Positions 46,706 to 48,087 of a DNA stretch of 64,000 bases are shown piece after piece (within the stretch, counting starts at the first letter, position 1; each line of letters begins with the position of its first letter). The stretch comes from Gymnopilus junonius. Lineage: Eukaryota > Basidiomycota > Agaricomycetes > Agaricales > Galerinaceae. A program made the position numbers and the translations under genes. The notes below the pieces were generated by a model. That model ran no database searches. It was not told the DNA's origin and worked only from the letters and a program-made list of their open reading frames with translations. Location: assembly GCA_015501075.1 (NCBI GenBank), contig JADNYJ010000046.1, forward strand, positions 62,001-126,000. The letters run 5' to 3'.

Positions 46706-48087
46706 ATGGCAACCCCCATTGCGACTACCACTAATACCCCTACTAAAGCTGGGTCGTTGACAATTGCTGGCTCGGGCATAGCCAGCGTCGGTCACATAAC
46801 CCTTGAAACCCTTGCTTATATTAAAGAGTCCCACAAAGTCTTCTATCTCGTCTGCGACCCTGTTACAGAGGCATTTATCCAGGAGAACGGCAAGGGACCT
46901 TGCATTAACCTTTCTATCTACTACGATTCTCAAAAGAGCCGATATGACTCTTATCTTCAGATGTGCGAGGAAAGTTGTAATTTCTTTCATTTCCAAGACT
47001 TCCTTGAGCTTACTTACTTTATAACCTATTAGGTGATGCTACGAGACGTACGAAACGGACTTGATGTCTTGGGAGTCTTCTATGGCCATCCAGGTGTTTT
47101 TGTCAGTCCGTCTCACAGAGCGATTGCTCTTGCGAGAGAGGAAGGCTTTAACGCCAAAATGCTCGCTGGTGTCTCAGCTGAAGACTGTCTATTTGCCGAC
47201 CTTGAATTCGATCCAGCAAGCTTCGGCTGTATGACATGCGAAGCCAGCGAATTACTCATTCGAAACCGGCCATTAAACCCCTACATCCACAACGTCATTT
47301 GGCAAGTTGGGAGCGTCGGCGTTACTGACATGACTTTCAATGTAAGTTCATTCCATTCTTAAATCCAATTAGCAATTTTAAAAAATTGCTCCAACCATAG
47401 AACAATAAATTCCCTATTCTTATCGATCGTCTCGAGAAGGATTTTGGACCCAACCACACCGTTATTCACTATGTTGGTCGCGTAATTCCACAATCCGTCT
47501 CGAAAATTGAAACTTTTACCATTGCTGACCTCCGTAAGGAAGAAGTAATGAACCACTTCGACGCCATTTCGACGCTCTATGTTCCTCCTCGCGACATCAG
47601 TCCCGTCGATCCGACCATGGCTGAGAAGCTGGGGCCTTCCGGAACACGGGTTGAACCAATTGAAGCCTTCCGCCCATCGCTCAAGTGGTCTGCCCAGAAC
47701 GACAAACGCTCGTATGCATACAACCCCTATGAGAGCGATGTCGTTGCACAGTTGGATAATTATGTGACTCCTGAAGGCCATCGGATTTTGCAAGGTTCGC
47801 CTGCGATGAAGAAGTTCTTGATAACTCTCGCAACGAGCCCTCAGCTCCTTCAGGCATATAGAGAGAATCCCTCCGCCATTGTGGATACGGTTGAGGGGCT
47901 GAATGAGCAGGAGAAGTATGGTTTGAAGCTAGGTAGTGAAGGAGCAGTTTATGCCTTGATGTCGAGGCCGACAGGCGACATAGCGCGGGAGAAGGAGCTT
48001 ACAAACGACGAGATTGCGAATAACCACGGCGCACCCTATGCCTTCGTCAGCGCGGTCATTATTGCTGCGATTATTTGTGCCCTTTGA
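46706..48087 (+). CDS. Borosin precursor: alpha-N-methyltransferase fused to its C-terminal peptide substrate (OphMA-like)
   Basis: Omphalotin-type RiPP protein that methylates backbone amides of its own tail with S-adenosylmethionine. Exons 46706-46969, 47033-47341 and 47401-48087 encode 419 aa, close to the size of OphMA. Residues 14-250 are a tetrapyrrole-methylase-type domain: KAGSLTIAGSGIASVGHITL, YYDSQKSRYDSYLQMCE (residues 72-88), VFYGHPGVFVSPSHRAIALA (103-122) and MLAGVSAEDCLFADL. Then come a clasp-like region (KYGLKLGSEGAVYALM) and a hydrophobic tail from Tyr404 to the end, YAFVSAVIIAAIICAL, preceded by Gly-Ala-Pro. Val, Ile and Ala dominate, as in N-methylated cores. Intron 1 (46970-47032) begins GAAAGT instead of GTAAGT; unspliced, translation stops at 47030-47032. 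A TATA box lies 34 bp upstream. The tail could be mistaken for a membrane anchor. Confidence 0.9.

What the first reader, a model, noticed from the sequence alone, without database searches (positions are those of the whole stretch)
46706..48087. Uncharacterised borosin (autocatalytic backbone N-methylating RiPP) gene
The gene combines a tetrapyrrole-methylase-type domain with YYDSQKSR and FYGHPGVF motifs, a clasp-like helical region, and a hydrophobic C-terminal peptide in one 419-residue protein. This is the architecture of OphMA, the omphalotin precursor. The tail from Tyr404 differs from the omphalotin core as I recall it, so a new N-methylated, perhaps cyclic, peptide is expected. A routine annotation would call it a SAM methyltransferase with a membrane anchor.
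Basis: partly seen in the sequence, partly recalled or inferred. Interest (0 to 1): 0.96.

Follow-up and report, generated by a model that had tools for sequence, protein, structure and literature searches.

The report
Mushroom self-methylating peptide precursor gene
A gene in the mushroom Gymnopilus junonius encodes a protein of the borosin family that is predicted to methylate the backbone of its own tail to make a peptide natural product, and the public record lacks the first fifth of the protein, likely because an intron there begins with the unusual letters GA.

Summary
The finding is real. Window 46706-48087 encodes a 419-residue fused borosin precursor: TP_methylase domain, conserved active-site residues, clasp region, hydrophobic C-terminal tail. 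It matches Mycena rosella MroMA1 (53% identity) and OphMA (44%) over nearly their whole length. The organism is Gymnopilus junonius. The family is large, so this is a new member of a known kind. (1) Intron 1 (46970-47032) begins GA, not GT, in both haplotypes, so the 419-residue protein needs a rare GA-AG splice; the deposited protein starts at Met86 and lacks three of four active-site residues. Models of the closest relatives, in Moniliophthora, break at the same spot and imply GA there too. (2) The gene sits in a likely cluster with a P450, an FAD monooxygenase and a SnoaL-like protein; the last two have their nearest relatives on what appears to be one 14-kb M. roreri contig. (3) No prolyl oligopeptidase was found nearby and there is no follower peptide, so a linear product is more likely than an omphalotin-like ring. 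Splicing, methylation and product are untested.

The parts
46664..46671 (+). TATATAAA, TATA-box-like sequence about 40 bases before the ATG
   Evidence: sequence
46706..46969 (+). borosin exon 1 (residues 1-88; carries Tyr73, Arg79, Tyr83)
46970..47032 (+). intron 1, 63 bases, GA...AG: donor GAG|GAAAGT, acceptor TATTAG; same letters in haplotype 2
47033..47341 (+). borosin exon 2 (residues 89-191; FYGHPGVF with Tyr105)
47342..47400 (+). intron 2, 59 bases, GTAAGT...TAG
47401..48087 (+). borosin exon 3 (residues 192-419 and stop; end of methyltransferase, clasp, core)
48037..48084 (+). predicted core YAFVSAVIIAAIICAL (Tyr404-Leu419), directly after Pro403 and running to the stop; no follower
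   Evidence: sequence; compared with relatives
44076..44625 (+). SnoaL_2-like (NTF2-fold) gene, 4 exons, 127 aa; likely cluster member
   Evidence: 25.3 bits, just under the Pfam cut-off of 27
40800..42895 (-). FAD-dependent monooxygenase gene (PF01494), 9 exons, 556 aa, identical to the deposited protein; likely tailoring enzyme
37441..39346 (-). cytochrome P450 gene (PF00067 in two of five ORFs tested, other pieces by eye; exons not modelled, ends approximate); possible tailoring enzyme

Best explanation
This is a Gymnopilus junonius gene for a fused borosin precursor whose methyltransferase domain is predicted to N-methylate the backbone of the hydrophobic tail (from about Tyr404) of its own dimer partner. 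Shown: the open three-exon gene in two haplotypes, the domain, the active-site residues, the homology along the whole length and the GA start of intron 1. Inferred: intron 1 is removed as a rare GA-AG intron by the ordinary spliceosome (its other donor positions mostly fit the consensus), which gives the 419-residue enzyme. Inferred: methylation runs N to C on YAFVSAVIIAAIICAL with SAM, as in OphMA. Inferred: a protease outside the cluster frees the tail, possibly at Pro403. Inferred: the neighbouring FAD monooxygenase, P450 and SnoaL-like protein then oxidise or rearrange it. The product is more likely linear than cyclic.
For: Pfam TP_methylase at residues 18-210, E 2e-11. PDB hits MroMA1/2, OphMA, dbOphMA, SonM; best aligned 13-411. 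Residues Tyr73, Arg79, Tyr83, Tyr105 sit at the spacing of OphMA Y66, R72, Y76, Y98 (residues named in PDB titles). In the 92 homologues that keep the Arg-FYGHPG spacing, the first is Tyr in 86 and the third in 91; Arg and the last Tyr are there by the way the 92 were chosen. The deposited 334-aa model (CPB84DRAFT_1778734, 100% identical) itself has the Glu88|Val89 junction. The Arg79-FYGHPG spacing is 24 residues in 92 of 99 usable of 120 listed homologues; the GA-AG product has 24, the two nearest canonical ones 21 and 22. Donor matches CAG|GTAAGT in 7 of 9 positions. Tree: Gymnopilus + 3 Moniliophthora rows 100/100. FAD monooxygenase and SnoaL-like genes: best non-self relatives 63% and 57% in M. 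roreri MCA 2997, each on a contig of 14,171 bases.
Against: No transcript was seen, so GA-AG splicing is unproved; all 12 other introns modelled here begin GT. The M. perniciosa model (P0003) reads MCEES-VML and could use an ordinary donor. OphMA Tyr63 is Ser70 here, though only 26 of 92 homologues have Tyr there. No linked prolyl oligopeptidase was found. The model of the deposited fragment matches the fused borosin structures (first 42 rows) with rmsd 13.9-16.2 A and TM 0.52-0.59 only. Haplotype SNPs (4 silent, 2 replacement) do not prove selection, P 0.10. The core borders and product are guesses.
Confidence: 0.8

Rival explanations
1. The gene is no longer functional: the GT donor of intron 1 was lost, the intron is retained, and the message gives only a 108-residue stub that ends at the TAG of the acceptor.
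For: The donor is GA in both haplotypes; reading through the intron gives 108 residues. GA-AG introns are rare: 35 introns (0.038%) in Ganoderma lingzhi (PMC11590231, passages read).
Against: All three exons are open and the active-site residues intact. The GA seems to predate the split from the Moniliophthora genes. In a simulation 10.7% of copies stay free of stops after 5% random substitutions, 1.4% after 10% and 0.3% after 14%. Functional GA-AG sites are known, e.g. Trema SYMRK (PMC10668435, passages read).
Confidence: 0.15
2. Intron 1 is spliced with an ordinary GT a few bases further in (46974 or 46977) and the acceptor at 47045, giving a 416- or 417-residue borosin with a changed helix.
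For: Both choices keep the frame.
Against: They shorten the Arg79-FYGHPG spacing to 21 and 22 residues, against 24 in 92 of 99 usable homologues. They skip the AG at 47031, the only one between the CTTAC at 47009 and exon 2, for a CGAG further on.
Confidence: 0.07
3. It is an ordinary diphthine- or precorrin-type methylase with a membrane anchor.
For: The Pfam domain is shared.
Against: The PDB hits are borosins, the best along the whole length, clasp included. The genome has separate TP_methylase matches that score higher against PF00590, on C301 and C652 (that they are diphthine synthase is my guess). Vitamin B12 synthesis is not expected in a fungus (general knowledge).
Confidence: 0.02

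Closest known systems
MroMA1 / MroMA2 (Mycena rosella; PDB 7twk, 7twl)
   Same: Fused methyltransferase-clasp-core, MroMA1 53% identity over 95% of the query, hydrophobic tail
   Different: Different core; MroMA1 tail has no Pro at the clasp-core border
OphMA (omphalotin precursor) and LedMA, DbiMA1
   Same: Same architecture and active-site residues; 42-44% identity for OphMA, DbiMA1 and a LedMA-like Lentinula protein
   Different: Different branch of the tree; no SVMSTE/SVVSSA-like follower; no prolyl oligopeptidase found in the cluster; different core
Moniliophthora perniciosa MPER_11585 and M. roreri homologues (deposited as hypothetical protein or uroporphyrin-III methyltransferase)
   Same: Closest relatives, 72% (M. 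perniciosa) and 65% (M. roreri P0005) over 80-86% of the query; alike tails (GKPVAFLSAVVIATIIIAL, GKPTAFVGLVVIIAVVV); models break at the same intron
   Different: No paper with both 'Moniliophthora' and 'borosin' in the held library; M. perniciosa model has two extra residues at the junction
SonM-SonA (split, type IV borosin, Shewanella)
   Same: Homologous methyltransferase, E 9e-38; SonM R67, Y71, Y93 have the spacing of Arg79, Tyr83, Tyr105 here (residues from PMC8429565, passages)
   Different: Enzyme and precursor are separate proteins

Membership tests
Fused (type I) borosin | TP_methylase-type SAM methyltransferase domain | tested here: met
   PF00590 E 2e-11, 44.7 bits against cut-off 27.8
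Fused (type I) borosin | Active-site Tyr/Arg/Tyr/Tyr (OphMA Y66, R72, Y76, Y98) | tested here: met
   Tyr73, Arg79, Tyr83, Tyr105; OphMA residues from PDB titles. OphMA Y63 is Ser70; 66 of 92 homologues also lack Tyr there
Fused (type I) borosin | Clasp domain between enzyme and core | tested here: met
   Aligned with MroMA1 to residue 408 and OphMA to 411; helices predicted there
Fused (type I) borosin | Hydrophobic core at the C-terminus of the same protein | tested here: met
   YAFVSAVIIAAIICAL at residues 404-419, pattern shared with Moniliophthora
Fused (type I) borosin | Intact full-length message | tested here: inconclusive
   Needs a GA-AG splice; no transcript available
Fused (type I) borosin | Autocatalytic backbone N-methylation | not testable with these tools
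   needs mass spectrometry
Fused (type I) borosin | Interlocked homodimer | not tested
   only a single chain of the deposited fragment was modelled
Omphalotin-type cluster | Linked prolyl oligopeptidase (OphP) | tested here: not met
   The 4 PF02897 pieces are all on C501; the 14 PF00326 pieces are on other contigs, none on C401, C248 or C278. Exon-wise search that scores only the best candidates, weak on short exons
Omphalotin-type cluster | Follower peptide after the core | tested here: not met
   The stop follows the hydrophobic tail directly
Omphalotin-type cluster | Oxidising tailoring genes nearby | tested here: met
   FAD monooxygenase and P450 genes within 10 kb

The most novel reading that the evidence does not exclude
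The GA donor is an old, retained feature: since before the Gymnopilus and Moniliophthora genes parted, this borosin lineage has carried a GA-AG intron exactly between the active-site exon and the rest of the enzyme. Removing that intron acts as a switch that decides whether the fungus makes the active self-methylating precursor or a 108-residue stub.
Probability: 0.25. Interest if true: 0.65.

Novelty: new member of a known kind. Interest (0 to 1): 0.42.

Why it matters
Borosins are a ribosomal route to backbone N-methylated peptides, a chemistry valued in drugs, and each new core with its own methyltransferase widens the toolbox. This gene adds a core without a follower and with a set of likely oxidising neighbours, two of which have their nearest relatives in Moniliophthora. 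The GA donor shows how such genes can be missed in annotation: the deposited protein lacks three of the four active-site residues. One RT-PCR would tell whether a rare GA-AG intron has been kept in a biosynthetic gene.

Tried and rejected
Ordinary methylase: rejected. Canonical splicing of intron 1: of the 29 in-frame GT or GC choices listed within the scanned range (donors 46900-47009), none gives 419 residues; the longest give 417, 416 and 413. A variant U1 snRNA that could read GA was sought with Rfam U1 in the own genome; nothing was found and no control genome rang, so that says nothing. Rfam on 37-50 kb: no hit at gathering thresholds. Only the deposited 334-aa fragment was folded; a global superposition on borosin structures is poor (rmsd about 14 A), so I rest on sequence. 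I first read Pro403 as a prolyl oligopeptidase site. The OphP paper says the first cut in the OphMA clasp is made by a still unknown host protease, so I kept Pro403 only as a possibility (PMC12235650, passages read). A loss of the tailoring genes in haplotype 2 was considered and dropped: contig C248 leaves the window at a retroelement, and the FAD monooxygenase lies on C278. The 2019 survey of fungal borosins (10.1021/jacs.9b03690) is not held.

Full report
What is there. The protein matches Pfam TP_methylase over residues 18-210 (E 2e-11) and PDB borosins along almost its whole length (MroMCspL E 7e-133, MroMA1 about 1e-132, OphMA about 1e-104, SonM 9e-38). The protein search scored 7,996 candidates; 3,951 passed E 1e-10 and the best 120 were listed. 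The top one is 100% identical, named CPB84DRAFT_1778734 of Gymnopilus junonius, on a contig of 249,605 bases, the length of the window's own contig C401. That identifies the organism. A G. junonius genome (strain AH 44721) was published in PMC8480192 (passages); that this is the same assembly is likely but not checked.

The splice problem. The deposited protein has 334 residues and starts at Met86, so it lacks Tyr73, Arg79 and Tyr83. The cause is likely intron 1: it starts GAAAGT where a GT is expected. Its donor matches the consensus CAG|GTAAGT (recalled) in 7 of 9 positions and differs at the second intron base and at exon position -3; the 12 other introns modelled in the borosin, SnoaL-like and FAD genes all start GT. 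Haplotype 2 (contig C248) has the same letters; the gene differs there by 6 single bases in 1,382, none in a splice site, 4 silent and 2 conservative, I213V and K389R. The deposited fragment itself reads MCE-VML, that is, it uses this very junction; what evidence lay behind that model I cannot see. A deposited start at the same Met also occurs in other species without a broken junction (P0036 and P0087), so the start alone proves nothing.

Which product is conserved. I measured the distance from the active-site Arg to FYGHPG in the 120 listed homologues. Of these, 99 had the motif with at least 45 residues before it, and 92 of the 99 have exactly 24 residues between them. The other 21 were short or lacked the motif and were left out. 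The GA-AG product has 24; the two closest canonical choices give 21 and 22. The seven exceptions look like models broken at or next to this junction: three from M. roreri (P0005, P0045, P0059), two from Rhizopogon (P0018, P0053), one from Ceratobasidium (P0092) and one from Lentinula edodes (P0054). The Lentinula model carries 20 extra residues between Glu and VML, beginning Val-Asn. That is what a retained in-phase intron starting GT would give, so the intron position looks old and the GA derived; this is inferred from the protein.

The GA looks shared with Moniliophthora. The window's DNA around the junction reads QMCEES in one frame and RCARK in the next. The deposited M. perniciosa P0003 and M. 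roreri P0005 models carry MCEES, and the M. roreri models P0045 and P0057 (perhaps one gene from two strains) carry RCARK; P0059 does not. The codon after the conserved Glu is therefore GAA or GAG in P0003 and P0005, by inference from proteins; I had no DNA from them. Against this, the M. perniciosa model keeps VML after MCEES, so it could use an ordinary donor with two extra residues. The four genes form one clade at 100/100 in a tree of 37 rows; one of the 38 chosen, P0108, was skipped for lack of the motif. Since the reading frame stayed open after that split, simple decay is unlikely: 10.7% of simulated copies remain free of stops after 5% random changes, 1.4% after 10% and 0.3% after 14%. 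The SNP pattern between haplotypes alone is not significant (P 0.10).

Precedent. GA-AG introns are rare but real: 35 introns, 0.038%, in the mushroom Ganoderma lingzhi (PMC11590231, passages); a functional one in Trema SYMRK (PMC10668435, passages); many in two animals (PMC7072748, passages).

Active site and core. PDB titles name OphMA Y63, Y66, R72, Y76, Y98 and W400 as mutated residues. Here Tyr73, Arg79, Tyr83 and Tyr105 stand at the spacings of Y66, R72, Y76 and Y98; Y63 is Ser70, and only 26 of 92 homologues have Tyr there. The SonM paper reports that R67A leaves trace activity only (PMC8429565, passages); R67 has the place of Arg79 by spacing. The tail after Pro403 is YAFVSAVIIAAIICAL and ends the protein. 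The Moniliophthora tails have the same pattern, and a Pro near this place is common among the 40 tails printed though not universal: MroMA1 lacks it. Only the deposited fragment was folded, with mean pLDDT 83; its best structural matches are borosins, E 1e-32, but with rmsd about 14 A.

Neighbourhood. Reading leftwards lie a SnoaL_2-like gene (44076-44625; E 2.3e-5, just under the cut-off), an FAD monooxygenase (40800-42895, minus; PF01494; identical to the deposited protein) and a P450 gene (about 37.4-39.3 kb, minus; PF00067 in two of five ORFs tested). The SnoaL-like search had only 11 candidates and, besides the deposited protein itself, one hit: M. roreri Moror_3513, 57%, on a contig of 14,171 bases. 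The FAD monooxygenase has its best non-self hit, 63%, also in M. roreri MCA 2997 on a contig of 14,171 bases; the other 118 of the 120 rows listed (of 368 hits) are at 48% or less. I take the two to be one contig from the equal length. One of those next hits, from Ceratobasidium sp. AG-I, is on a contig of 194,452 bases, the length of the contig of its borosin P0050. So these genes are likely borosin tailoring genes. Against this, co-location of the M. roreri pair with a borosin was not seen: the MCA 2997 borosin model P0059 is on a contig of 21,341 bases. The P450 was not searched for relatives. No prolyl oligopeptidase piece was found on C401, C248 or C278; the PF02897 matches are all on C501, with the limits of an exon-wise search. 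Omphalotin-type clusters have OphMA, OphP, monooxygenases and O-acyltransferases (PMC7878506, introduction read), so this cluster differs.

Known or new. In the held library I found no paper on a borosin of Gymnopilus or Moniliophthora: 'Gymnopilus junonius' with 'borosin' gave one review (listing only), 'Gymnopilus, N-methyltransferase, RiPP' none, 'Moniliophthora, borosin' none. The 2019 survey that reported over 50 putative borosin methyltransferases (cited in PMC11285071, passages) is not held, so the gene may be listed there. The kind is well known: borosins are sorted into types 0 to XI (PMC11395268, passages); calling this one type I is from its architecture and from memory of that scheme. 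I file it as a new member of a known kind.

Shown against inferred. Shown: gene, frame, homology, residues, GA letters in two haplotypes, neighbours. Inferred: GA-AG splicing, methylation, release at Pro403, tailoring, a linear product.

Noticed in passing
window 43735-43739; contig C248 from 25877 on and C278 near 21968: Haplotype 2 carries an LTR retroelement (reverse transcriptase and integrase-like ORFs, Ty3-type by eye) between the FAD monooxygenase and SnoaL-like genes, with a 5-base target duplication CGCTG.
   Followed up: partly
window 35441-36687 and 48348-49172, minus strand: A PEX19 gene (PF04614 E 2.4e-8) and a partial second copy (seen by blastn only; three colinear pieces, 70-82% identical, same orientation) flank the P450-FAD-SnoaL-borosin block like direct repeats; whether the block was inserted, or came with a foreign PEX19 piece, was not tested.
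   Followed up: partly
window 44076-44625: The deposited SnoaL-like model (98 aa) stops before the last exon; a 127-aa four-exon model matches the M. roreri protein end to end.
   Followed up: yes
window 51228-53769, minus strand: Ndc1-type nucleoporin gene just beyond the cluster (of three ORFs tested, one above and one below the PF09531 cut-off), an ordinary housekeeping neighbour.
   Followed up: no
window 55985-57625 and 60859-62622, plus strand: An FAD_binding_4-like oxidase (one of three ORFs, below Pfam cut-off) and an F-box/LRR-like protein by eye, 8 and 13 kb downstream; relation to the cluster unknown.
   Followed up: no
Rhizopogon vinicolor proteins P0004, P0006, P0007, P0009, P0018, P0053 and others: One Rhizopogon genome holds many borosin homologues; several are deposited as partial and two (P0018, P0053) break near the same junction, which suggests a large, partly decayed family.
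   Followed up: no
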